Positions 1 through 10,835 of a stretch of DNA of 64,000 nucleotides are shown here, one piece after another. The stretch's first letter is position 1. Each line of letters starts with the position of its first letter. This stretch comes from Flavobacteriales bacterium (lineage in GTDB: Bacteria > Bacteroidota > Bacteroidia > CAIKAF01), in NCBI GenBank assembly GCA_022402535.1, contig JAKRSD010000019.1:90560-154559 (forward strand), written 5' to 3'. Below the pieces are notes generated by a model. It was not told the origin of the DNA. It searched no databases and saw only the letters and a program-made list of their open reading frames with translations. Made by a program: the position numbers and the translations under genes.

Positions 1-430
1 TATATTTTTTTAAAGGAACTCGCGCTTCGCTGCGCTCCGGAAAGCAATTCACAACTATTGTTGTCCATGCCTGTACAAAAAGGTTGTTGTCAAAGACCTT
101 GAAAAATCAAAGATTGCTCGTAAAGTTATATTTTTTTAAAGGAACTCGCGCTTCGCTGCGCTCCGGAAAGCAATTCACAACCATAACGCATCAGTTAATT
201 GATATAGCCGAGTTGTCAAAGACCTTGAAAAATCAAAGATTGCTCGTAAAGTTATAGTTTTTATATAGGAACTCGCACTCCGCTTTGCTCCGGAAAGCAA
301 TACACAACTGAATCAATTAAAGATGCACGTATTTAATGTTGTCAAAGACCTTGAAAAATCAAAGATTGATCGTAAAGTTATATTTTTTTAAAGGAACTCG
401 CGCTTCGCTGCGCTCCGGAAAGCAATTCAT
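1..430 (-). CRISPR. Type II-C CRISPR array with ~96-nt repeats, cut by the window edge
   Basis: Four repeat copies are visible: a partial one at 1-55, full ones at 86-181 (96 nt) and 212-308 (97 nt), and a last one from 338 that loses its end near 430. They are separated by three unrelated spacers at 56-85 (30 nt), 182-211 (30 nt) and 309-337 (29 nt). On the plus strand a repeat begins GTTGTCAAAGACC and ends AATTCACAAC. The crRNA sense is the minus strand, because the first 16 nt there, GTTGTGAATTGCTTTC, are complementary to the tracrRNA anti-repeat at 7594-7608. The 30-nt spacers and terminal GTTGT/ACAAC repeats are normal for type II-C; the repeat length is about twice the usual. The array lies directly downstream of cas2 and continues beyond position 1. 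Copies 1, 2 and 4 are near identical; copy 3 differs mainly in the central hairpin. Confidence 0.9.
141..164 (-). repeat. REP-like hairpin embedded in the CRISPR repeat
   Basis: The middle of each repeat carries a GC-rich imperfect palindrome in otherwise AT-rich sequence. In copy 2 GGA (141-143) can pair with TCC (162-164), and GCGC (148-151) with GCGC (158-161), leaving a TTCGCT loop and a four-base bulge. The same element sits at 15-38 in copy 1. On the crRNA strand it starts with GGAG, and bacterial REP sequences recognised by RAYT transposases are known to carry a GTAG or GGAG tetranucleotide beside the stem. In copy 3 one stem G-C pair is replaced by an A-T pair, so part of the stem is preserved. 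Calling this a REP is inference; other copies in the genome would be needed to confirm it. Confidence 0.6.
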
Positions 431-510
431 AAAGCAATATTTCGTAAATTTGTGTGTTCTGTCGCTTCGGGCGTTTGGAATTTTGGGCCTTGCCATTTTT
501 TCGCAGAGAC

Positions 511-541
511 AACCCCGGAAACTCCGGGGTTTTTTATTTTT
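511..541 (+). terminator. Intrinsic terminator inside the decayed array region
   Basis: The arms AACCCCGGA and TCCGGGGTT (511-531) enclose AAC and are followed by a T-rich run, which makes a rho-independent terminator on the plus strand only. It lies 3' of truncated repeat copy 4, whose plus strand carries the anti-repeat-like string GGAAAGCAATTCA. A plus-strand transcript from there would end here. No credible protein is encoded between 430 and 605; the 70-aa reading frame across it starts inside a CRISPR repeat. Confidence 0.7.
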
Positions 542-605
542 CAGATAAATAGACTTAAGCCAGCTAAATGCTTTCTTTTTGTTCTAATTTCCAAAACATT
601 TTGAA

Positions 606-705
606 GTTGTCAAAGACCTTGAAAAATCAAAGATTGCTCGTAAAGTTATAGTTTGTTTTTTTAAGGAACTCCTGCTCCGCTACGCTTCGGAAAGCAATTT
701 TAAGT
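606..705 (-). repeat. Degenerate CRISPR repeat copy 5
   Basis: The start (GTTGTCAAAGACCTTG and the next ~30 nt) matches the intact repeats, but the hairpin core has diverged and the end reads CAATTTTAAG instead of CAATTCACAAC. It is separated from copy 4 by about 175 bp of unrelated sequence holding the terminator at 511-541. Loss of the terminal ACAAC should prevent pairing with the tracrRNA over its full length. Confidence 0.75.
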
Positions 706-720
706 TTCGGGTATTATATA

Positions 721-814
721 CCCTGCGTGGTCTTATAAAAAGTAAAGATTACTCGTGAAGTTATATTTTTTTATAGCCACTCTTGCTCTGCTTTACCTGA
801 AAACTATTCACTTG
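721..814 (-). repeat. More decayed CRISPR repeat copy 6
   Basis: Recognisable by AAAGATTACTCGTGAAGTTA (the intact form has GCTCGTAAAGTTA), a T-run, a CTC-GCT-rich core and GAAAACTATTCAC near the end. Many substitutions separate it from the intact repeats. The boundaries are approximate, and no normal-sized spacer separates it from copy 5. Confidence 0.6.
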
Positions 815-889
815 GCAGTTACGCAGCACCTGATGCGGCGTATGTAAAGGTTTGTTTACATGAATTCTAAGACAAATTATGGGCTTTTG

Positions 890-935
890 TATTTTCTATA
901 GAATTCGATCTATGCTTCGTTTCAGAAAGTGTTAT
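890..935 (-). repeat. Possible relic of a seventh CRISPR repeat
   Basis: The segment with TCTATAGAATTCG followed by TATGCTTCG and CAGAAAGTG resembles the linker, hairpin and GGAAAGC part of the repeat. Similarity is weak and the first third of the repeat is not recognisable. From here to cas2 (936-1036) I see nothing else. Confidence 0.3.
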
Positions 936-1036
936 AAGGGAAAAGAACTGAAAATAAAAAAAATAAACACGATAGAGTTATATTAATTTCAAAACGGCCA
1001 GTCCCTTATTTTAAGTATTTGGCACATTTTGTCTGG

Positions 1037-1372
1037 CTAAAACAGTTCTAGTTGTTGCGAAACCGGAGGAACCGGTTTTTCGGTTCCCCCATAAAATATT
1101 TCCATGGCGCCAAACTGTTTATCGGTAACCAGCATAATGCCTATATGTCCCTTGGGCGGTAAAATAGAACGGACCCGCTTCATATGCACATCGGCATTTT
1201 CGCGGCTGCTGCAATGCCTTATATACATGCTGAACTGAAACATCTGAAATCCGTCGGCCAGAATGGACTTGCGGAATTTGGCGTAGTTCTTCCGGTCCTT
1301 TTTGGTTTCGGTAGGCATGTCGAAAAATACCATAACCCACATAATCCGATAAGCATTTAGGCGTGAATACAT
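1037..1372 (-). CDS. cas2: CRISPR-associated endonuclease Cas2, type II
   Basis: The 111-aa protein has the small ferredoxin-like fold signature of Cas2, with VMVFFDMPT near residues 13-21 supplying the conserved Asp at the end of the first strand, followed by a lysine-rich helix. Cas2 forms the structural core of the Cas1-Cas2 integrase that inserts new spacers next to a repeat. The length and the VFFDMPT form are typical of type II-C systems of Bacteroidota. It is the last gene of the cas operon, 43 nt after cas1, and the array lies downstream. Its base composition matches cas1 and the RAYT gene, and is clearly less AT-rich than cas9. Confidence 0.95.
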   Translation of the reverse strand: MYSRLNAYRIMWVMVFFDMPTETKKDRKNYAKFRKSILADGFQMFQFSMYIRHCSSRENADVHMKRVRSILPPKGHIGIMLVTDKQFGAMEIFYGGTEKPVPPVSQQLELF

Positions 1373-1415: not shown

Positions 1416-2315
1416 TTAAATAAATTCGGGGTATAGAATTTTTCGTTGTTTGCCTTCAAAACATTTTGCTAATGACGCGGTGGTGCGTTGCATAGCCACC
1501 ATCAGCGGACTTTTTTCACCGTCTATCAGCACATCCATCGCCGGTATGCCCAACAATTCCTGTTTCATTTCTTTGGTCATGGGATCCAGAAAGTTTCCGT
1601 TCATCCGTACAATATGGCAAACCAGTTTATCCACATAAGGGCGGTAAGGTTCCATGATATCATCGGCCAGGCAATACGCATTATACTGATTGCGGTGGAA
1701 AATACCCAATGTGGGCAAAAGCCCCGATGCCGTGAGGCTGCGAGCCGTTACCGCCCGGAGTATGGCATATCCGTAATTCAGAAGATTATTGGGTGGTTCC
1801 CCTTCGCGGTGGCGTTTAAATTTTAAAAAATCCGGAAACAGCATTTTCCAATAAAAGGTAGCCGCTGTGGCTTCTGCATTTCCGCTGTCGCCGCTTTTCA
1901 CGGTTTTTGCCAGTTCAGTCAGAAACCGGAATTCTTTACGTTCCCTTTCCAGCAATGCGGCCTGATTTTGAATTTTAGCGCTTACGGTCTGCTGCCAGAG
2001 TTGCTTTTTCAAAGGTTCCGAAGCATCAATCTGCATTTTGAATTTCATGCTTTGCAGGCTGTGCCCGTCCAGATTAAAAAACATACCTGTGGGGTGGTGT
2101 TTGTCGTCGCAGGTAATTACGGCCACATTATTGTCAAGCAGACGGGCCATCACGGATTGGGTTATGGTAATCTGCTGATGGTCTAATATCAGCAGCCCGA
2201 TATCTTCAATGGGTACGGATTTTTCTTCGCCCGTTTCGGTCAGCTGAATAATCAGCTGTTCGTTGCGGGTTTTCAGGTAGGCGGGGTTTCCGAAAAAGAG
2301 GGTGCGTTTTATCAT
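1416..2315 (-). CDS. cas1: CRISPR-associated endonuclease Cas1, type II
   Basis: The 299-aa protein is a full-length type II Cas1, the catalytic subunit of the spacer integrase. The N-terminal beta domain opens with IKRTLFFGNPAYL. The helical catalytic domain contains NNLLNYGYAILRA, then GIFHRNQYNAYCLADDIMEP, which provides the metal-binding His and Asp; the Glu ligand probably lies in the GNAEATAATFYW segment near residue 147. The ATG start is 7 nt after the RAYT stop codon, so the two genes are very likely co-transcribed. The repeat this enzyme must recognise here is twice the usual length, and its substrate contains a hairpin, so the mode of integration is an open question. No truncation or missing ligand is visible. 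Confidence 0.95.
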   Translation of the reverse strand: MIKRTLFFGNPAYLKTRNEQLIIQLTETGEEKSVPIEDIGLLILDHQQITITQSVMARLLDNNVAVITCDDKHHPTGMFFNLDGHSLQSMKFKMQIDASEPLKKQLWQQTVSAKIQNQAALLERERKEFRFLTELAKTVKSGDSGNAEATAATFYWKMLFPDFLKFKRHREGEPPNNLLNYGYAILRAVTARSLTASGLLPTLGIFHRNQYNAYCLADDIMEPYRPYVDKLVCHIVRMNGNFLDPMTKEMKQELLGIPAMDVLIDGEKSPLMVAMQRTTASLAKCFEGKQRKILYPEFI

Positions 2316-2322
2316 GGGATGT

Positions 2323-2952
2323 TCAGGTTAATTCACTTTCGAGGATTTCATACTCCGCAAACTGCATTTCTTTTGCCCGGTGCATAGAGTGGTAATTGGA
2401 TTCATCACCGAAAAGCACTTCCAGCCATTGCGTTTGCCTTTCCGGAAAAATAGAATAGGATGAATGACGCCAATCGTTTACCGAAGTCGTAAAGCCGTGT
2501 TTAACGGGATTCAGATGTATATAAAGAATCAGATTTCGGAGGTATTCTTCATCGCTTACCTCTTTCCGTTTAAAATTTTTGATAAACAGCGAACCCCGTC
2601 TGTTATATACTTTGTTGAAGGACTGCGTATAACTGCTGAAAAAGTTGGCAAATTGTTTACTGATGAATTTTGACCCGGCGGATTCGGCGGTTTCGTTTAC
2701 AACTTTTCCAAAGTTCGAAACTTTGGAAAAGTTTGAAACCGTCGAATCCGCTGCGATGTCCTCTTCGGATTTAATCTTCACCAGCAGGTGGAAGTGGTTT
2801 GGCATCAGACACCAGGCCAGGGTTTCGGCTACGGGGTCTATATGCTTCCGGTATTTTTCTTTAAAAAAGAAATAGTTCTTTTCCTCGCGAAACAGATTAT
2901 CCTCGCCATTGGCATGGTTGAAAATATGGTAGTATGTATCTAAGTAGAGCAT
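2323..2952 (-). CDS. REP-associated tyrosine transposase (RAYT, Y1/HUH family) within the cas operon
   Basis: The 209-aa protein belongs to the Y1_Tnp (IS200-like) superfamily, RAYT/TnpA-REP branch. It has the metal-binding HUH motif in LMPNHFHLLVKI (His53 and His55), then FFSSYTQSFNKVYNRRGSLF at about residues 104-123, where Tyr108 is the likely nucleophile, then LRNLILYIHLNPVKHG. Known RAYTs are single-copy domesticated enzymes that bind and nick REP hairpins in single-stranded DNA. The gene is not flanked by insertion-sequence ends; it starts one nucleotide after the 51-aa ORF stop and ends 7 nt before cas1, so it is built into the operon. A variable linker at residues 70-90 is encoded by a perfect hairpin (2701-2733). 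A role in CRISPR repeat formation or spacer acquisition is inference. Confidence 0.9.
   Translation of the reverse strand: MLYLDTYYHIFNHANGEDNLFREEKNYFFFKEKYRKHIDPVAETLAWCLMPNHFHLLVKIKSEEDIAADSTVSNFSKVSNFGKVVNETAESAGSKFISKQFANFFSSYTQSFNKVYNRRGSLFIKNFKRKEVSDEEYLRNLILYIHLNPVKHGFTTSVNDWRHSSYSIFPERQTQWLEVLFGDESNYHSMHRAKEMQFAEYEILESELT
2701..2733. repeat. Perfect inverted repeat (15-bp arms) inside the RAYT gene
   Basis: AACTTTTCCAAAGTT (2701-2715), a CGA loop (2716-2718) and AACTTTGGAAAAGTT (2719-2733) form a perfect hairpin within the coding sequence. In protein it gives the low-complexity linker around SNFSKVSNFGKV. It lies between the HUH motif and the catalytic Tyr region, where RAYTs vary in length. 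It could be an inserted palindromic repeat or a regulatory or self-target site; the sequence alone does not decide. Confidence 0.85.
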
Positions 2953-2953
2953 G

Positions 2954-3109
2954 TTACCCTTTTTTATCGTGCGCCTTAACCAGGCTCCTCCAAAGTTTTG
3001 TCGCCTGTTTCCGTTTTCTTAGCGCCTCTTCTTCCGTTAACTCGGCAAAGAGCACATCTTCCAACGCATTCAGCCATTTGTTTATCACTTTCACCTTAAT
3101 TGATTTCAT
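2954..3109 (-). CDS. Small 51-aa basic protein between cas9 and RAYT
   Basis: The frame starts with an ATG at 3107-3109 immediately after the cas9 stop codon (TAA ATG) and ends with a TAA at 2954-2956, one base before the RAYT start. The product begins MKSIKVKVINKWLNALEDV, continues with an acidic-then-basic stretch (LTEEEALRKRKQATKLW), and ends KAHDKKG. It looks helical and charged; I recognise no family. Seamless packing between two real genes, and base composition like RAYT rather than cas9, argue for a real, translationally coupled gene. It may be a nucleic-acid-binding accessory of the RAYT or an adaptation factor, but that is a guess. Confidence 0.65.
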   Translation of the reverse strand: MKSIKVKVINKWLNALEDVLFAELTEEEALRKRKQATKLWRSLVKAHDKKG

Positions 3110-6100
3110 TTAGAATAATACCTTTGAAATGTTGCCTAATCTGCCTACTTTGAGTTTCCAACAAACTTCTTTTATTCTTATTGTATCAGAATCCATTGTC
3201 GTCTCAAGTTTGTTTTGGCTTGAAAGCTCACCAAATTTTGATTTTGCGTCATATTGTTTAATTAAAGAAGCTATATCATTACGAATAAAATAACATTCAC
3301 TACCTGAAGATTTTTCCATTTTGTAAATTCTATTCGTTTGCTCTTTACTTAAATTATTTAAATTAAGCAATCTTGGATTTTCAATTTCTTCTTGTGTAGG
3401 AACATAAACCAAATCATTTGGAGATAGAGTAAATAAATATTCTACCTCAACTTCTTTTCCTCTGTACTCTAAAGTTGATTTTACAGCAACTGGCGTCCAT
3501 AAATTTTCATCAACATTTTCTATTTCTTGTTGCTTTTGGTGTTCAATTATTTCATTTAAAGGAACTGTTTCAAACATACGTTCTTTTGTTTTTTTGTTCA
3601 CGTATACAGCAAAAAATAAATTAGGTGCTCCTTGAACATACTTACTTGTTTTATTACCCTTTTCACCGAGTGTAAACCTCCCACTTCCTTTTTCATAAGT
3701 TCTAAATTTAATGATTGGTTTATGTTTCTTTCCATTATTATATCTTTCAATGTTTTGATTCAATTCTTCAATTCCTTCAGGAGAAAATGCTGTTTCATAA
3801 TTGTAAATTTGTTCACCTTTATGATTAAGTTCTTTAAACTTTTCCTGTATAAGGAAATTTTTCAATATTTTTTGAATTCCTGTATCGGTAATTTTTTCAA
3901 TTTTACTGATATTAAAAGAGGTGTCTAAAGATTTTCTTGTTGATGTTGTAATTTCTCCTTTTTTTAATTCGATCCATGGCAATTTAACAAGACCGGAAAC
4001 AGTTTCTTCGTGTAATGATTTTCTAACCGCCCAATTGTCACCTTTTGTTTGAGGGACAAGTTTTTTCTTTAATTGCCCGTTTTCTTTCACCCACTTCCAG
4101 TATTTGTTTTTGGTTTTGTTAATTACTCTAGTATTTTGTTTGAAGCTAACAACTGTTGTTTCTAATTTAGCTCTTGTATCTTGCGTAAACGAATCCCAAG
4201 GTTTGTGAAATTCTTTAGCTACGTTTTGCTTTACTCTTTTAATAGTTCCATCGGGGTGTCTTTTATCACGTTCAATTTCTTCTGATCTACGCAATTTCTT
4301 AACAAGTGAAAAATTATCCCGTTTAGTGTTTATGGAAGTAATATAATTGATGTGGTCTTTCGTTACACAAGCAATCACCAAAGCATCTAACGCGTGATGT
4401 CTGTGGTCAATACGTTTTTTACTGAAACCTTTGAGCAGGCTGTCGGGTACTTTTGCTAAAAATTTGTTTGTGTTTGGGTTTATTTCACCAAAGTCATTGG
4501 ATTGGGTTAAGTCATTCATTCGCTTAAATCGAGGGGCAATAATTTCATTCCAGACATCATTTAGGCCCCAATCTTGTCTCATTTGAGAAGTGATAGAACC
4601 TGTAACAGGAACAATATTCTTTGAGGTTACCTCTTTTTCATCATCTTCACGAACAATTTTACTTAATAAGTTTTTCACAACTTTACTGATGTAGCGGCTA
4701 TCATTAAGTTGTCGATTTATAAACGATTCGGGAATATCTTCGCTCAAAAGGTTTTCTCGTTTTGTTTTGTTCTTAGCGAAATACATTTTTACGTGTTGCT
4801 CGTAATCAGGGATTGAGAATACTTTAACATTTTTCCCTTGTCCCAAATCTATTGTTGTTCCACCAAATTCTTTTATAAACTCATATGCTGTTCTGTTGTC
4901 TTTAAGTTGATTTACTTCAGCTTCACAGATAATTTTATTGCTCAGCGAATCATCAAAATATCTTGATTGAGGGAATATGTGTTCGATTTGATATTTATAC
5001 GTAAACAAATCAGACAGCATGATTGAATTTCCGGTATATGGAGATATATATCCTTGCTCTAACCAAAGTTTATAGCGTTGAATTTCAGATTTTGAAGGGC
5101 TGCTGTTTTTTCTGATTTTACTTATATCATCTTCACTTAGTTTGTCAAATTTTGCATTCGGATTTTGATAAACACCTTCTTCGTATATCTTCAGAATTTC
5201 CTGTTGACTTGGAGAATATGGTTTTACATCTATACCATCATTCAATAGTTCATGTAATATTGCTCTGATGCGAAGATTCGTGTTTTCGTTTTCGTTTTGT
5301 ATTTTAGAAATTCTCTCCCTTGTTTTATTGTCGTTTTTCATTTCACGCCCAAGTTCAATATGAATTTCATCAAAATAACCTTCTTCACCATTTCCATATT
5401 CATCCCAAATATCTTTTACCACTCTTAGTGTTTCTGTTAATACTTGTTCAACGATTGGATTGCGAAGCGAATGTTGTTTAAATGACCCTTTTAAGTTTGG
5501 ATTTAGAAAATCGGCAATATCCTGAGAAGTAGTCCATTTTTTAGTGTCGCTTGCTTCTGAATGTTTGTCATATACTATATAAGAAGCTAACCATAAAGGA
5601 AGCCCTTTAAAATCTTCATTTTTTTGAAGGCGAATTGATTTTTCTCTTACACGATTTTGGATTTTTTCATCAAACTCTGCTGTCTGTAATTTTTCAATTC
5701 TTGATTTAGTGCTTTTTTCGATATTATCCCAAAACCAATATTTTCCAATACGCATTAATGGAAGAAGCTTTTTAATTGCTTTTTCTGAGAACGAACCATA
5801 GTCGCGTTTAAATGGAGGGTACTTCTCAAATAGTGAATTGAAATCTTCACTCAAATTATGTTTAGAAGCAAATTTTCGAACTGCACTTTTCCTTTCTTCA
5901 GGGTCAGTAACAGAATATAATAAATGCCAAAGATGCTGAGTAGATTCAGAGGTTAAAAAGGAATTATCAATGTTTAATTTTTTTATTCGAATCAAAAAGG
6001 ATGCCCTTGTTTCGTTGCAAGGATATTCTTTGTCTTCCACATAATTCCACCTGAATTTATCTTCCTTTTTCTTGAAATATGCTAAAAGTTGTTTTTGGTT

Positions 6101-7555
6101 GACTTTATCCCTGTCATTGAGCCATTCAAATAATTCCACCCATTTGACTTCCGTGGATAGTAGTAATCCAGTAACATCAACATCAAAATTCCCATCTCTC
6201 TCGCGTTCATATATTTTAAGATTTGCTAAAAATTGCCATAACCTAAATTCTTGAAAAAGAGGATTTGATTTCGCGATACATTTCAAGTGTATTTTCTCTT
6301 TTGTGTCTTTTCTAACCCTATATTCTAAAGTACAATCGCTTATCAGGTGTGTTTTTGTTTTAAGTGGACGTTGATAAAATATAATATCATCCATAAAAAG
6401 ATAAAGAAAATCACGATTCTCAATGTTCTTTCTGTGAGCTTCATTGTTTGGATAAAGTTCAAGTATACAAGCTGTATACAAATCTTTGCTTTGTAAATCA
6501 GTATGTAATTCAATTTGTTTTTTTAAAATTTTGGATAGTTCGGCTTTGTAAAACTTACGCTCAATAGTTCGCACTAATTTTCCTCTTATTTTTTGCGTTG
6601 GATTAGCTAAAAGGGCTTCGTAAATGTAGGTGCCAACTGTTTTGCCGCTTTTACTTATTTCTTGTTCTGTTTTCTTCTTAATCGCAATCCAATCCTGCTC
6701 AGAGTCTACAGCCTTATAAGTTCTTTTTACTTCACCATTTTTTAATTCTGAAGAAGTAACAATAAATTCTCTAGTTTTTTCTATCCAATCTTGAGGTTTT
6801 GTGGTTTGTTTATCATATTTCCAACCGTTGTCAAAATAAATATCATATAATTTTTCGCCTGTTTTTTTTAGACTTTCACCTGAATCTAAAACTTTTTGAA
6901 CTTTTAAAATTAAAAACTCTTTATTTTTCCCATCATCTGTTTCTTGTTCTTCTTCACTCAACTGGTAATATCCCCTTTTTTGGTTGAAATTCAGTATGAG
7001 CCAAGCTAATTCTTCTTTTGATATTCTTTTAGTTAATGCCTTTTTGCGTAAATAATAAATCGTCCAATCATAAGGTATTGTAGTTTCTTTCCCGTTTGCT
7101 TTAGTATATAATAAATCAGGTTGAAATATTTTAAATTCTTCAACCATTTCATTGAAAGAATCTTTAAAGAGAAATTCATATTTACCCTGTTCATTTTTGA
7201 AATAAGGTAGTTTAGGTTCACCGTGATTTATAAATTGCCCTTTGTGAAATTCAAAGTCTATTGCATTTTTATAATGACTAGGCAGAAACTCTAATATATT
7301 GAGAACTCGATGTAATCTTTCACGTCTTAAATTATCCCGCTGATATAGTCGTCTTATACTACGAGCTTTTGTACGAGCTTCTGTTTGTGATTTTGTTACA
7401 CCTTTTCCAAAATCAGATAATACATCTTGACCCATCGGAATAATTCTACTCCCCATTCCAAGAATATTACCTTTTTTGTTTTCAAAGTCCTGTTCTATCA
7501 ATGCCCAACCTATGGAGTTGGTTCCTAAGTCGAGTCCTAAAATTTTCTTGTTCAT
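3110..7555 (-). CDS. cas9: CRISPR-associated endonuclease Cas9, subtype II-C
   Basis: The 1481-aa RNA-guided DNA endonuclease has all nuclease motifs: RuvC-I at residues 3-18 (ILGLDLGTNSIGWA, catalytic Asp9), the Arg-rich bridge helix near residues 60-80 (ARSIRRLYQRDNLRRERLHR), RuvC-II near residue 731 (IHIELGREM), HNH near residue 857 (YQIEHIFPQSRYFDDS, catalytic His) and RuvC-III near residue 1053 (HRHHALDALVIA). The C-terminal ~350 residues are the PAM-interacting region. The length fits the large II-C Cas9 proteins of Bacteroidota, and no csn2 or cas4 is present. It is the first gene of the operon; the tracrRNA is divergent upstream. The gene is much more AT-rich than cas1, cas2 and RAYT, with the change at its stop codon, which suggests a separate origin. 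I saw no clear TAnnTTTG promoter for it. Confidence 0.97.
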   Translation of the reverse strand: MNKKILGLDLGTNSIGWALIEQDFENKKGNILGMGSRIIPMGQDVLSDFGKGVTKSQTEARTKARSIRRLYQRDNLRRERLHRVLNILEFLPSHYKNAIDFEFHKGQFINHGEPKLPYFKNEQGKYEFLFKDSFNEMVEEFKIFQPDLLYTKANGKETTIPYDWTIYYLRKKALTKRISKEELAWLILNFNQKRGYYQLSEEEQETDDGKNKEFLILKVQKVLDSGESLKKTGEKLYDIYFDNGWKYDKQTTKPQDWIEKTREFIVTSSELKNGEVKRTYKAVDSEQDWIAIKKKTEQEISKSGKTVGTYIYEALLANPTQKIRGKLVRTIERKFYKAELSKILKKQIELHTDLQSKDLYTACILELYPNNEAHRKNIENRDFLYLFMDDIIFYQRPLKTKTHLISDCTLEYRVRKDTKEKIHLKCIAKSNPLFQEFRLWQFLANLKIYERERDGNFDVDVTGLLLSTEVKWVELFEWLNDRDKVNQKQLLAYFKKKEDKFRWNYVEDKEYPCNETRASFLIRIKKLNIDNSFLTSESTQHLWHLLYSVTDPEERKSAVRKFASKHNLSEDFNSLFEKYPPFKRDYGSFSEKAIKKLLPLMRIGKYWFWDNIEKSTKSRIEKLQTAEFDEKIQNRVREKSIRLQKNEDFKGLPLWLASYIVYDKHSEASDTKKWTTSQDIADFLNPNLKGSFKQHSLRNPIVEQVLTETLRVVKDIWDEYGNGEEGYFDEIHIELGREMKNDNKTRERISKIQNENENTNLRIRAILHELLNDGIDVKPYSPSQQEILKIYEEGVYQNPNAKFDKLSEDDISKIRKNSSPSKSEIQRYKLWLEQGYISPYTGNSIMLSDLFTYKYQIEHIFPQSRYFDDSLSNKIICEAEVNQLKDNRTAYEFIKEFGGTTIDLGQGKNVKVFSIPDYEQHVKMYFAKNKTKRENLLSEDIPESFINRQLNDSRYISKVVKNLLSKIVREDDEKEVTSKNIVPVTGSITSQMRQDWGLNDVWNEIIAPRFKRMNDLTQSNDFGEINPNTNKFLAKVPDSLLKGFSKKRIDHRHHALDALVIACVTKDHINYITSINTKRDNFSLVKKLRRSEEIERDKRHPDGTIKRVKQNVAKEFHKPWDSFTQDTRAKLETTVVSFKQNTRVINKTKNKYWKWVKENGQLKKKLVPQTKGDNWAVRKSLHEETVSGLVKLPWIELKKGEITTSTRKSLDTSFNISKIEKITDTGIQKILKNFLIQEKFKELNHKGEQIYNYETAFSPEGIEELNQNIERYNNGKKHKPIIKFRTYEKGSGRFTLGEKGNKTSKYVQGAPNLFFAVYVNKKTKERMFETVPLNEIIEHQKQQEIENVDENLWTPVAVKSTLEYRGKEVEVEYLFTLSPNDLVYVPTQEEIENPRLLNLNNLSKEQTNRIYKMEKSSGSECYFIRNDIASLIKQYDAKSKFGELSSQNKLETTMDSDTIRIKEVCWKLKVGRLGNISKVLF

Positions 7556-7590: not shown

Positions 7591-7673
7591 CTAGAAAGCA
7601 ATTCACAATAAGGATTATTCCGTTGTGAAAACATTTAAGGTGGCCCCGATTAATGTCGGGGTCGTCTTTTTTT
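7591..7673 (+). ncRNA. tracrRNA of the type II-C system
   Basis: The anti-repeat GAAAGCAATTCACAA (7594-7608) is perfectly complementary to the first part of the repeat in crRNA sense. It is followed by AAGGATTATTCCGTTGTG, the nexus-like stem typical of Bacteroidota II-C tracrRNAs, a single-stranded stretch, and a terminator hairpin (CCCCGA/TCGGGG, 7644-7661) with a seven-T run at 7667-7673. The tracrRNA is expressed divergently from cas9. Complementarity to the repeat is exactly 15 bp and stops within two bases of the inserted hairpin, so the outer ~80 nt of the 96-nt repeat cannot pair with it. The predicted length is about 83 nt; the 5' end is estimated from the promoter. Confidence 0.9.
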
Positions 7674-7834: not shown

Positions 7835-8770
7835 TTATTTGCTCACTACCACTTTTTGAATCTGTGATTTGGTTCCGGCAACAAACTCTACCGAGTACAC
7901 TCCGGCAGCAAAACCCGAAACATCGGCGCTGATGGTGTTGCCGTTATAGGAAGGGTAACTTCCGTTCCATACTTTTTTGCCTTCTACGTTGTACATAGAG
8001 ATGGTTAAATCTTGTCCGTTGGCAAAGTTTCCGGCTTCAAAATTAACAAAATCGCTGGCCGGATTGGGGAATACTCCCACCAAAGCGCTGTTGAATTCTT
8101 CTACATCGGCGGCAGAAACCAGTTCTACCCGCACATTGTCAATACCGATGTAATTACTGTTGGCTCCGGAAGGACCTCCGTCGGTTACATTATAATTAAA
8201 CCCTAAACGGCCAGTTTGCCCCGCAGCAATTCCTGACAAGAAAAAGGTGTATTCAGTCCAATCACCGGGGTAGCCGTTACCCACCAAGGCATCATTAACG
8301 ATTACGCCTTCTTCCGTAAAATCACCCAAAGAAGTTGTGGTAGTGCCCACATCTTCACTAACTCCGGCTTTGCTGTAATACACTCTGAGACGATCGGCAA
8401 AAGTGGAACCGGTTACTGTACGGGTGTAAAAAGAAACACGGACGTTGTTGCCCAATCCGAAAGTAGGACTCAACAGCCAGTTGCTTATGTTGTTTGCTCC
8501 TGTGGTACTGTTAAAATTTACCCCTACATAAGAAGAATCCGGGCCGTTTTGGGAAAGAAAAACAGACGTGTTTCCGGTAAACCAGCTTGCACTACCCGCT
8601 GGGCTGCTGTTGTTGGAGATAACCCAGCCTGCATTCTGAATACCGTTGATTCCGGTGTCAAAGCCTTCGCTGAGAAGTGTGGTTATCACCTGTGCATTGG
8701 CTGTTCCAGCCATAGAGGCCACAAAAATACCTGCGCCCGCAAGCGCATTTTTAAGTAAACTTTTCATCAT
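7835..8770 (-). CDS. Secreted adhesin-like protein with T9SS C-terminal sorting domain
   Basis: The 311-aa protein has a signal peptide (KNALAGAGIFVASMAGTANA, cleavage near residue 26), a 'choice-of-anchor J'/cleaved-adhesin-like beta-sandwich at about residues 33-215 with the family features EGFD near the start and YIGIDNVRVE at the end, and a type A T9SS sorting domain in the last ~80 residues (VGVFPNPASDFVNF, then a GVYSVEFV strand and a lysine-containing end). Such proteins are exported by Sec, cross the outer membrane through the type IX system and are released or attached to the surface. It is a single gene with its own terminator. The ligand is unknown. Two ATG codons stand side by side at the start. 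Confidence 0.85.
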   Translation of the reverse strand: MMKSLLKNALAGAGIFVASMAGTANAQVITTLLSEGFDTGINGIQNAGWVISNNSSPAGSASWFTGNTSVFLSQNGPDSSYVGVNFNSTTGANNISNWLLSPTFGLGNNVRVSFYTRTVTGSTFADRLRVYYSKAGVSEDVGTTTTSLGDFTEEGVIVNDALVGNGYPGDWTEYTFFLSGIAAGQTGRLGFNYNVTDGGPSGANSNYIGIDNVRVELVSAADVEEFNSALVGVFPNPASDFVNFEAGNFANGQDLTISMYNVEGKKVWNGSYPSYNGNTISADVSGFAAGVYSVEFVAGTKSQIQKVVVSK

Positions 8771-8859
8771 AAAATAAAATTTTAGGTTAGTAATGAATAC
8801 GAATTTAGGCTAAATATTTTAAAGTAAACTATTTTAAAGGCCAGTTTATAAACAGGGCT

Positions 8860-9195
8860 TTATTTAAATCTGAAAATGAAAAATACCGCTAAAAAAATGA
8901 AAAGGAACGCTACGATATAATTCCAGCGCAGTTCTTCTTTCAGAAATAGAACCGAGAATACGGCAAACACAATCAGGGTAATGGCCTCCTGAATAATTTT
9001 GAGCTGACCTGCCGTAAACTGTCCGCTAAAGAAACCGATGCGGTTCGCCGGCACCATCAGCAGGTATTCAAAAAAAGCAATGCCCCAACTGAATAAAATG
9101 GCTTTCCACAAAGGAATCGCGGCATTTTTGAGATGTCCGTACCAGGCAAAGGTCATAAACACATTTGACACAATGAGCAACAAAATGGTTTTCAT
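8860..9195 (-). CDS. DMT-type small membrane protein (DUF486 family)
   Basis: The 111-aa protein has four hydrophobic segments and the family features YGHLKN near residue 19, FEYLLMVPANRIG near residues 42-54, and a QFTAGQLKIIQEAITL stretch. DUF486/DMT proteins are small members of the drug/metabolite transporter superfamily; their substrates are unknown. It ends with RFK and lies 9 nt downstream of the guanine deaminase gene, so the two probably share a transcript. A role in export of a purine-related compound is only suggested by this neighbour. Confidence 0.8.
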   Translation of the reverse strand: MKTILLLIVSNVFMTFAWYGHLKNAAIPLWKAILFSWGIAFFEYLLMVPANRIGFFSGQFTAGQLKIIQEAITLIVFAVFSVLFLKEELRWNYIVAFLFIFLAVFFIFRFK

Positions 9196-9204
9196 ATACT
9201 ATGA

Positions 9205-9705
9205 TTAATAAGCTATGGAATCGGGATTATTTTTCCACTCGGTAAAGGGTTGTGCGGCATCGGCAATGGGAATTTGCCGGAAAATAAGAGAACGGTTTTG
9301 GGCCGGTAAATTCAATTCCGTGTAGATAAATGAGTCATCGAAACCGTTTGCCGAGGCAACGTTTTTGGGGTTGGCAAAATACACGGCACGCGGTCTGGCC
9401 CAATAAAGCGCAGCCATACACATGGGGCAGGGTTCGCTGCTGGCATATACTTCGCAATCGTCCAACTGCCAGCTTCCGAGTACACGACATGCTGCCCGGA
9501 TGGCTTCGATTTCCGCATGGGCCGTAGGATCGTTTTGATGGGTTACACGGTTTACGCCTTCCGAAATTTTCACTCCGTTTTTATATATCACACACCCAAA
9601 CGGTCCGCCGCCTGCATTGCGAACATGATGCACGGCCAACTGAATGGCTTCCTGTAATCGCTTTTCGATGGATTGTGTATCGGGCAATGCGGATTGTGAT
9701 TTCAT
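9205..9705 (-). CDS. guaD: Guanine deaminase (cytidine-deaminase-like zinc enzyme)
   Basis: The 166-aa protein has the zinc-binding deaminase motifs HAEIEAIRAA (His and catalytic Glu, about residue 83) and SSEPCPMCMAALYWARP (two Cys ligands, about residues 110-126). It also has the guanine-deaminase C-terminal hallmarks GFDDSFIYTEL and a final WKNNPDSIAY tail resembling Bacillus subtilis GuaD. It converts guanine to xanthine and ammonia in purine salvage. The tRNA adenosine deaminase TadA is the main alternative, but the NDPTAHAE and FDDSFIY features favour GuaD. The gene lies divergent from the plus-strand gene at 9761. Confidence 0.88.
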   Translation of the reverse strand: MKSQSALPDTQSIEKRLQEAIQLAVHHVRNAGGGPFGCVIYKNGVKISEGVNRVTHQNDPTAHAEIEAIRAACRVLGSWQLDDCEVYASSEPCPMCMAALYWARPRAVYFANPKNVASANGFDDSFIYTELNLPAQNRSLIFRQIPIADAAQPFTEWKNNPDSIAY

Positions 9706-9739
9706 GGTAGATGGATAAACAAATTAGGCCGTAGTCTCG

Positions 9740-9747
9740 TACCTTTG
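9740..9747 (+). promoter_or_regulatory. -7 box upstream of the gene at 9761
   Basis: TACCTTTG matches TAnnTTTG exactly and lies 13 bases before the ATG, giving a very short 5' leader. I see no exact -33 element. Confidence 0.55.
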
Positions 9748-9760
9748 CAAAGATAAACGT

Positions 9761-10327
9761 ATGCACGATATAGAACCTTACGCCGGCTGGCGGACTCTTT
9801 ATAAGGCCGAAGAAGACAGGCGGTCCCCGTTTTATGGACGGGAATACAGTGAATATGAATGCCATAATGAAATCTACGGATATTACATTCACCCGCAATG
9901 GGATGAGTTCGGCTCGCCTACTTTGTATCTTAAACTGCTTTATGCAGATTATATCCGCGGATACTGCATCATTGAATTAATAGGGGAGTGGAACGATGCC
10001 GTGAACAACGACATCATGTTTCTGAAAAGGGATTTTGCCGATTTTCTGATCGAAAAAGGCATCCAAAAATTTATTTTAATCGGCGAACAGGTGCTGAATG
10101 CTTTTCCGCAGGACGAGGACTACTATGCCGAATGGGCCGAAGACTGCGAAAATGGCTGGATTGCCCTGGTAAATTTTCAGCCTCACGTGCTGGAAGAAAT
10201 GAGTGCATACGGTATGCGTCATTATCTGAACTGGGGACCGGGCTTAGATACCTTAAACTGGCACGGAAAATCGCCCGATGTGTTATTTGCCGCGGTATCG
10301 CATCTGCTCAGTACACGGCTATCATAG
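9761..10327 (+). CDS. Conserved hypothetical protein, 188 aa
   Basis: I do not recognise a named family. The soluble acidic protein has many Tyr, Trp, Asp and Glu residues, begins MHDIEPYAGWRTLYKAEEDR, and has neither signal peptide nor membrane segment. A central segment (DFADFLIEKGIQKFILIGEQVL) looks like an alternating helix-strand unit, and the C-terminus has a conserved-looking WGPGLDTLNWHGKSPD. It has its own promoter and converges on the biotin carrier protein gene. Codon use is like the neighbouring core genes, so it is probably a real cytoplasmic protein. Confidence 0.7.
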   Translation: MHDIEPYAGWRTLYKAEEDRRSPFYGREYSEYECHNEIYGYYIHPQWDEFGSPTLYLKLLYADYIRGYCIIELIGEWNDAVNNDIMFLKRDFADFLIEKGIQKFILIGEQVLNAFPQDEDYYAEWAEDCENGWIALVNFQPHVLEEMSAYGMRHYLNWGPGLDTLNWHGKSPDVLFAAVSHLLSTRLS

Positions 10328-10331
10328 CGGT

Positions 10332-10835
10332 TTATTCGAACCGAACCAGTACGGCATTTTTTTCCACAGCCTGTCCGGGTTCACAATGCACCGATTTTAT
10401 GACCACATCGGCAGGCGCTTTGAGTACGTTTTCCATTTTCATGGCCTCTAAAACCAGTACAGGGTCTCCTTTAGAAAGCGTGTCGCCCGCTTTTACGGGA
10501 ATCTGAACCACCAGACCGGGCATGGGAGATTTGAGCTCATTTACTTTAGGAACCGGAAACGAATGAATACCAAACTGACGAAGTAATTCATCACTGCGGT
10601 CTTTCACTTCAAAGGTTTTTCGTTCTCCGTTTATACGAAGGGTCACTACCTTCTGTGCTTTATCAAAAGCTTCTAACAGAACATCATATACCTTTCCGTT
10701 TAAAGTAATTTTGCGATAACGGTCGGTGAGCTTTTCGGTATGTAGCGGAAAGCGGTTTCCATTGACAATCACTTCACCGGTCTGGGCGGCAGCAGTAATT
10801 TCAAATTCTTTTTCGTTTGCCTTTACTTTATACAT
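10332..10835 (-). CDS. Biotin/lipoyl carrier protein of an acyl-CoA carboxylase or oxaloacetate decarboxylase type
   Basis: I take the ATG at 10833-10835 (MYKVKANEKEFEI), because the 21 residues upstream in frame have no family character. The product of ~167 aa ends in a biotinyl domain with the attachment motif LEAMKMENVL (biotinylated Lys near residue 131) preceded by KSPMPGLVVQIPVKAGD. The N-terminal half is the small beta domain common in Bacteroidota biotin carrier subunits. In such enzymes it carries CO2 between a biotin carboxylase and a carboxyltransferase; neither partner is in the neighbourhood. Confidence 0.88.
   Translation of the reverse strand: MYKVKANEKEFEITAAAQTGEVIVNGNRFPLHTEKLTDRYRKITLNGKVYDVLLEAFDKAQKVVTLRINGERKTFEVKDRSDELLRQFGIHSFPVPKVNELKSPMPGLVVQIPVKAGDTLSKGDPVLVLEAMKMENVLKAPADVVIKSVHCEPGQAVEKNAVLVRFE

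What the first reader, a model, noticed from the sequence alone, without database searches (positions are those of the whole stretch)
1..430. Type II-C CRISPR array with repeats of ~96 nt
Two complete repeats (86-181 and 212-308) and parts of two others are conserved over 96-97 nt, while the spacers between them are unrelated and 29-30 nt long, normal for II-C. Established knowledge: CRISPR repeats are mostly 23-50 nt; Bacteroidota II-C repeats are often 36 or 46-48 nt. The terminal GTTGT/ACAAC is kept, so the extra length is internal. The repeat has three parts in crRNA sense: 16 nt that pair with the tracrRNA, a hairpin with an AT-rich linker of ~50 nt, and ~30 nt that resemble the promoter-bearing end of Bacteroidota repeats. 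I know of no described array like this.
Basis: partly seen in the sequence, partly recalled or inferred. Interest (0 to 1): 0.95.

Follow-up and report, generated by a model that had tools for sequence, protein, structure and literature searches.

The report
CRISPR repeats doubled by inserted hairpin
A bacterial CRISPR array has a set of oldest repeats that are twice the normal length because a short hairpin-like element sits inside each one, and the same thing has happened at the same spot in the arrays of at least eight related species.

Summary
The long repeats occupy only the leader-distal (oldest) end; the last is the degenerate terminal repeat, with two decayed copies beyond. The extra ~50 nt is one insert at a fixed site, between the repeat's promoter half and its 16-nt tracrRNA-pairing half. 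Of 36 related II-C arrays chosen by Cas9, six more have 25-57-nt inserts at this site, again leader-distal; two more were found by searching for the insert. Most belong to one dispersed hairpin family (120 of 395 related genomes; GAAAYCGAC...GGAGRTTCACGAA...ATGAGCTAAA). The window insert resembles an inverted, diverged member (0/1000 shuffles score as high). A REP-associated transposase-like gene lies between cas9 and cas1 in the window, and beside cas1 in 9 of 53 loci. Best reading: a REP/MITE-like element inserted in an early repeat, was copied with it, then was lost from younger repeats. New variant of a known kind; if copied during adaptation, it bears on the repeat-length ruler.

The parts
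1..55 (-). right part of a long repeat cut by the scaffold gap (perhaps the same repeat as hybrid repeat 21 left of the gap, or a later one)
56..85 (-). spacer, 30 nt
86..181 (-). long repeat, 96 nt (crRNA sense is the minus strand: GTTGTGAATTGCTTTC + ~50-nt insert + ATCTTTGATTTTTCAAGGTCTTTGACAAC)
116..165 (-). the ~50-nt insert inside that repeat (end points approximate); resembles an inverted, diverged member of a dispersed flavobacterial hairpin family
182..211 (-). spacer, 30 nt
212..308 (-). long repeat, 97 nt, insert diverged from its neighbours and sharing variants with the decayed copy at 605-700
309..337 (-). spacer, 29 nt; its first 22 nt match the DNA polymerase gene of a T4-like phage contig
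338..432 (-). terminal (leader-distal) long repeat, degenerate at its CACAAC end (CATAAAGC)
605..700 (-). decayed long repeat beyond the array end
720..815 (-). more strongly decayed long repeat
1037..1372 (-). cas2
1416..2315 (-). cas1 (type II family TIGR03639)
2323..2952 (-). REP-associated tyrosine transposase-like (RAYT) gene between cas9 and cas1
3110..7555 (-). cas9, 1481 aa
7594..7673 (+). putative tracrRNA: anti-repeat GAAAGCAATTCACAAT, GGATTATTCC hairpin and terminator

Best explanation
The 96-97-nt units are ordinary II-C repeats carrying one ~50-nt REP/MITE-like hairpin element at a fixed site. The site lies between the repeat's leader-proximal half and its terminal 15-16 nt, which pair with tracrRNA. 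The element entered one repeat early in the array's history. It was then copied as part of the repeat when new spacers were added (inferred), giving several 96-nt repeats with different spacers. The insert was later lost from the leader-side repeat, so the 20 youngest repeats are 46 nt. Because both repeat ends, including the tracr-pairing end, are intact, long repeats could still yield usable crRNAs; the spacing of the repeat-internal promoter is disrupted, so their expression is uncertain. Shown: insert, site, position bias, recurrence in other species, element family of the relatives' inserts. Inferred: copying by Cas1-Cas2, direction of loss, family membership of the window insert, and any role of the transposase-like gene.
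For: Full array order: 20 short repeats, hybrid repeat 21 (short-type SNP plus insert), then long repeats with the other SNP, a one-change-at-a-time series. The leader is at the short end: repeat polarity matches relatives, the terminal repeat is degenerate at the other end, and in F. columnare II-C the GTTGT end is leader-distal (PMC8092290). Same-site inserts in six of 36 Cas9-selected relative arrays (L054, L056, L070, L123, L127, L133) and in L164 and L171; long repeats sit leader-distally in all nine (mean fractional position 0.95, permutation p about 1e-5). Insert family found in 120/395 genomes, mostly outside the loci with detected cas9, and once inside a tracrRNA anti-repeat with AA on both sides. 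Stem with one pair covarying C-G/T-A, paired in 24/24 sequences. Window insert on the minus strand beats 1000 of 1000 shuffles and its variant 998 of 1000; the forward orientation shows nothing. tracr pairing kept: 16 contiguous pairs in the long repeat at 86-181, 18 in the short one.
Against: The window insert's similarity to the family is weak in bits (5.3-7.9) and covers about 34 of ~55 positions, in inverted orientation relative to the repeat; it could be a different hairpin element at the same site. No full copy exists elsewhere in this genome, only a ~17-20-nt GC-rich part. In L056, L164 and L171 long and short repeats alternate, which simple copying plus one loss does not give; gene conversion or repeated loss is needed. 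The unit at 212-308 is more like the decayed copy at 605 than like its neighbours. No empty-site strain was available.
Confidence: 0.66

Rival explanations
1. The insert spread between existing repeats by gene conversion or unequal recombination, not by spacer acquisition; Cas1-Cas2 never duplicated a 96-nt repeat.
For: Long and short repeats alternate in L056, L164 and L171, and two neighbouring long repeats in L164 are followed by the same spacer, a sign of recombination. The terminal window unit is 98% like the unit at 85-180 although a diverged unit lies between them.
Against: The window series changes one feature at a time along the array, as expected for serial copying; conversion tracts limited to a 46-nt repeat between unique spacers have very little homology to use (inference).
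Confidence: 0.22
2. The insert is a functional part of the leader-distal repeats, for example a promoter or start element that drives crRNA transcription into the array from its old end, and is kept for that reason.
For: II-C arrays are transcribed from within towards the leader (PMC8092290); the terminal repeat itself is long in most cases; the insert family is conserved across genera.
Against: The family is dispersed, mostly in genomes without a detected cas9; the window insert appears to have the opposite orientation; most arrays lack it; an unrelated hairpin occupies the same site in L133.
Confidence: 0.08
3. Each long repeat is a fusion of a repeat with a tracrRNA gene's promoter and anti-repeat.
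For: The terminal unit is followed by a stretch ending in a strong terminator-like hairpin (433-540), a little like the tracrRNA.
Against: A much better tracrRNA candidate is at 7594-7673; 400-545 folds no better than shuffles; the same resemblance in L056 seems to be the end of a neighbouring coding gene.
Confidence: 0.02
4. The long units are an assembly artefact of a repeat-rich region.
For: A scaffold gap of 100 N lies in this very region.
Against: Three spacers between the long units are unique, units differ from each other, and other species' assemblies, including a one-contig genome (G672, L164), show the same architecture.
Confidence: 0.02

Closest known systems
Type II-C CRISPR arrays of Bacteroidota (46-48-nt repeats)
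   Same: cas9-cas1-cas2, tracrRNA upstream of cas9, ~30-nt spacers, 16-nt tracr-pairing repeat end, degenerate terminal repeat
   Different: a subset of repeats is 96-97 nt; II-C repeats are reported only up to 48 bp (PMC5704556), although a 57-nt standard repeat was seen here in L056; the array is inverted relative to the cas genes compared with the relatives in which both are visible
REP/BIME elements and RAYT (TnpA-REP) transposases; MITEs
   Same: short, dispersed, hairpin-forming elements without genes; a RAYT-like gene is in the locus
   Different: sits inside CRISPR repeats and is multiplied there; nothing here links this transposase to this element by test
Molecular-ruler control of repeat length (II-A S. 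thermophilus, Kim et al. 2019, PMC6895254)
   Same: changes upstream of the distal-end ruler are tolerated and shift the second integration site; the insert here lies upstream of the last 15-16 nt
   Different: tested changes were 1-3 nt in II-A; here about 50 nt in a II-C-like system, seen only in natural arrays

Membership tests
Type II-C CRISPR-Cas | Cas9 effector with HNH and RuvC domains | tested here: met
   TIGR01865 E 8e-126; HNH_4, RuvC_III, bridge helix
Type II-C CRISPR-Cas | adaptation module of cas1 and cas2 only, no csn2 or cas4 | tested here: met
   only cas9, the RAYT-like gene, cas1 and cas2 between the tracrRNA and the array
Type II-C CRISPR-Cas | tracrRNA with anti-repeat matching the repeat | tested here: met
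   7594-7673; 18 contiguous pairs with the short repeat, 16 with the long repeat at 86-181; fold z -4.8
Type II-C CRISPR-Cas | Cas9 falls in the II-C clade of a Cas9 tree | not tested
   no tree built; assignment rests on gene content and on Bacteroidota relatives
CRISPR array (as opposed to an ordinary tandem repeat) | unique spacers of constant length between near-identical repeats | tested here: met
   23 unique spacers of 29-30 nt; one spacer of the long region has a 22-nt match to a phage gene
Dispersed flavobacterial hairpin (REP/MITE-like) family | sequence match to the family profile | tested here: inconclusive
   window insert minus strand 5.3 bits, 0/1000 shuffles as high, but only about 34 positions; most relatives' inserts are clear members
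Dispersed flavobacterial hairpin (REP/MITE-like) family | several full copies elsewhere in the same genome | tested here: not met
   only the locus itself and a ~17-20-nt GC-rich part elsewhere
RAYT (REP-associated tyrosine transposase) | RAYT profile, HUH motif and catalytic Tyr region | tested here: inconclusive
   PNHFHLL and SSYTQSFNK present; NF047646 E 8e-18, 64.8 bits, below the curated cut-off of 80

The most novel reading that the evidence does not exclude
The RAYT-like gene in the cas operon targets hairpin elements to CRISPR repeats, and the resulting long repeats are functionally used, for example as insulated single-spacer transcription units or as an end-cap of the array; Cas1-Cas2 of these systems duplicates repeats of almost any length because it recognises the two ends separately.
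Probability: 0.1. Interest if true: 0.85.

Novelty: new variant of a known kind. Interest (0 to 1): 0.6.

Why it matters
If the long repeats were copied during spacer acquisition, these natural arrays show that a type II-C integrase can duplicate a repeat twice the usual length, with the two cut sites ~96 bp apart. That bears directly on how repeat length is measured. They also show that small dispersed elements can hitchhike in CRISPR repeats without destroying the tracrRNA-pairing end. Array finders that cap repeat length near 55 nt (as set in PMC5704556) would split or miss such repeats, so the phenomenon may be under-recorded.

Tried and rejected
Rfam: no family matches the insert or the window region. 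tracrRNA fusion: rejected after finding the better tracrRNA candidate upstream of cas9 and seeing that the L056 resemblance was coding sequence. Whole-unit RNA structure: no better than shuffles; RNAalifold found no consensus on the first alignment. Dispersed full-length copies of the window unit in its own genome: none. Closest Cas9 relative (L022, 79% over the part present): its contig ends in cas9 and no similar repeat was found in that genome. Relatives of the 57-nt-repeat genome: only that genome among 240 of its family matched the pattern used. Cas9 in the window's own family and order: only the window's genome among 16. Protospacers: none in phage records for 11 of the spacers; two of three seeds gave nothing in viral contigs. 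Co-inheritance of RAYT-like and Cas1 proteins: correlation not significant (0.24, p 0.13). Papers: no description of such repeats found in the open-access library; subscription papers were not searchable.

Full report
Check of the observation. The window is G000:C11:90560-154559. Reading further left shows 20 identical 46-nt repeats GTTGTCAAAGACCTTTAAAAATCAAAGATAGAAAGCAATTCACAAC (+ strand) with 29-30-nt spacers, then repeat 21, which has the short-type SNP (CTTTAAAA) and the insert, then a 100-N scaffold gap, then the window. The long block does not occur in full elsewhere in the genome.

What the extra length is. In crRNA sense (minus strand) the short repeat is GTTGTGAATTGCTTTC-TATCTTTGATTTTTAAAGGTCTTTGACAAC. 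The long one is GTTGTGAATTGCTTTC-[CGGAGCGCAGCGAAGCGCGAGTTCCTTTAAAAAAATATAACTTTACGAGCA]-ATCTTTGATTTTTCAAGGTCTTTGACAAC. Both ends, including the 16 nt that pair with the putative tracrRNA at 7594-7673, are intact (the unit at 212-308 has one extra mismatch).

Which end is old. In the relatives where cas2 and array are both in view, the GxTGT end of the repeat (cas9 sense) faces a leader next to cas2, and where the other end of the array is visible it usually finishes in a repeat degenerate at CACAAC. In F. columnare the GTTGT end (crRNA sense) is leader-distal and transcription runs towards the leader (PMC8092290). By polarity, degenerate terminal repeat and decayed units at 605-700 and about 720-815, the long repeats are the oldest part of this array. 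Here the array lies inverted relative to the cas genes.

Recurrence. Among 36 other arrays selected only by Cas9 similarity, six have over-long repeats at the same internal site: L054 (99 nt, two), L056 (105 nt, repeats 21 and 25 of 25), L070 (terminal, degenerate), L123 (array end), L127 (104 nt, the last two, plus decayed copies), L133 (87 and 72 nt, with an unrelated palindrome CCTGCCCGCC...GGCAGGCGGG). L119 has three 252-bp tandem units of this kind beside its array. L164 (103 nt; repeats 30, 31, 35-38 of 38) and L171 (99 nt; repeats 14, 17 and 18 of 18) were found through the insert itself and so are not an unbiased sample. Long repeats lie leader-distally in all nine arrays including the window (permutation p about 1e-5).

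What the insert is related to. Inserts of L054, L119, L123, L127 and others align with each other. A profile of them (R1) matched 120 of 395 genomes of one related family, of which only a minority had a Cas9 hit in the same sample (27 genomes; that search missed some, since L164 and L171 do carry cas genes). Copies are sometimes identical and scattered in one genome, and one lies inside a tracrRNA anti-repeat with AA on both sides of the insertion point (L164). The consensus is about GAAAYCGACnnnnGGAGRTTCA(G)CGAAYWCC, an A/T-rich stretch, and ATGAGCTAAA, with a stem GAA(A)YC/GRTTC in which one pair covaries C-G/T-A and is kept in 24 of 24 sequences. I read it as a REP- or MITE-like element. 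The window insert scores against this family only on the strand opposite to its repeat: its units are the six best matches in the first kilobase (up to 7.9 bits), 0 of 1000 dinucleotide shuffles score as high, 2 of 1000 for the variant unit, and pairwise shuffle p is 0.002-0.02 against five of six such inserts. This is suggestive rather than conclusive, since only about 34 positions align. L056's insert is likewise a weak match (11 of 1000 shuffles as high).

Mechanism. The window series from old to young is: insert plus G-type SNP (several repeats), insert plus T-type SNP (repeat 21), no insert plus T-type SNP (20 repeats). That is what serial copying of the leader-side repeat with single changes would give, and it implies that 96-nt repeats were duplicated whole; this step is inferred. 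[quoted passage not shown] the insert here is likewise upstream of the last 15-16 nt. Alternation of long and short repeats in L056, L164 and L171 shows that recombination or repeated loss also plays a part. Whether long repeats are expressed is open: the spacing of the promoter motifs inside the repeat is changed by the insert.

A transposase in the operon. The gene between cas9 and cas1 (2323-2952) is a REP-associated tyrosine transposase-like protein (NF047646 E 8e-18 but below its curated cut-off; HUH and Tyr motifs kept). Nine of 53 loci with cas1 in view have such a gene within 200 bp of cas1 on the same strand. RAYT proteins are known to act on REP hairpins (general knowledge), so a link is attractive, but of the arrays with long repeats only the window and L133 carry the gene beside cas1, and it was not shown that this protein moves this element.

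Verdict. A real and recurrent variant of II-C arrays, with doubled leader-distal repeats carrying small hairpin elements. It is not a new kind of CRISPR system and the array does not have 96-nt repeats throughout. I found no description in the papers that could be searched.

Noticed in passing
window 2323-2952; also L025, L057, L061, L064, L067, L072, L117, L133: REP-associated tyrosine transposase-like gene next to cas1 in 9 of 53 II-C loci, often overlapping cas1 or a few bases from it, as if part of the operon.
   Followed up: partly
window about 2700-2745: A palindrome (TTTTCCAAAGTTCGAAACTTTGGAAAA) lies in frame inside the transposase-like gene, at a spot where its relatives vary in length.
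   Followed up: no
window 1-1036 versus cas genes: The array, its terminal repeat and decayed units are inverted relative to cas9-cas1-cas2 compared with the relatives in which both are visible; the leader end lies away from cas2, beyond the left edge of the window (L009 about 2371).
   Followed up: partly
L164 about 3050-3110 (G672): The tracrRNA anti-repeat of another species is interrupted by the same dispersed element, next to a 1461-aa cas9-sized ORF and a 38-repeat array.
   Followed up: partly
L056 (oriented) 8574-10709, G173: The standard repeat is 57 nt, longer than the 48 nt reported as maximum for type II-C.
   Followed up: partly
window 309-337 and L184 2093-2114: 22 contiguous nt of the spacer between two long repeats match the DNA polymerase gene of a T4-like phage contig (23 of 29 overall).
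   Followed up: partly
L119 (oriented) 8748-9500: Three tandem 252-bp units, each with a leader-like end and a long repeat with a second small hairpin, lie between cas2 and the array.
   Followed up: no
G000 contigs C11, C12, C29, C31: A short GC-rich motif (GCTCCGCTGCGCTCCGGAAAA) with AT-rich flanks recurs in the genome; it shares 16 nt with the window insert.
   Followed up: partly
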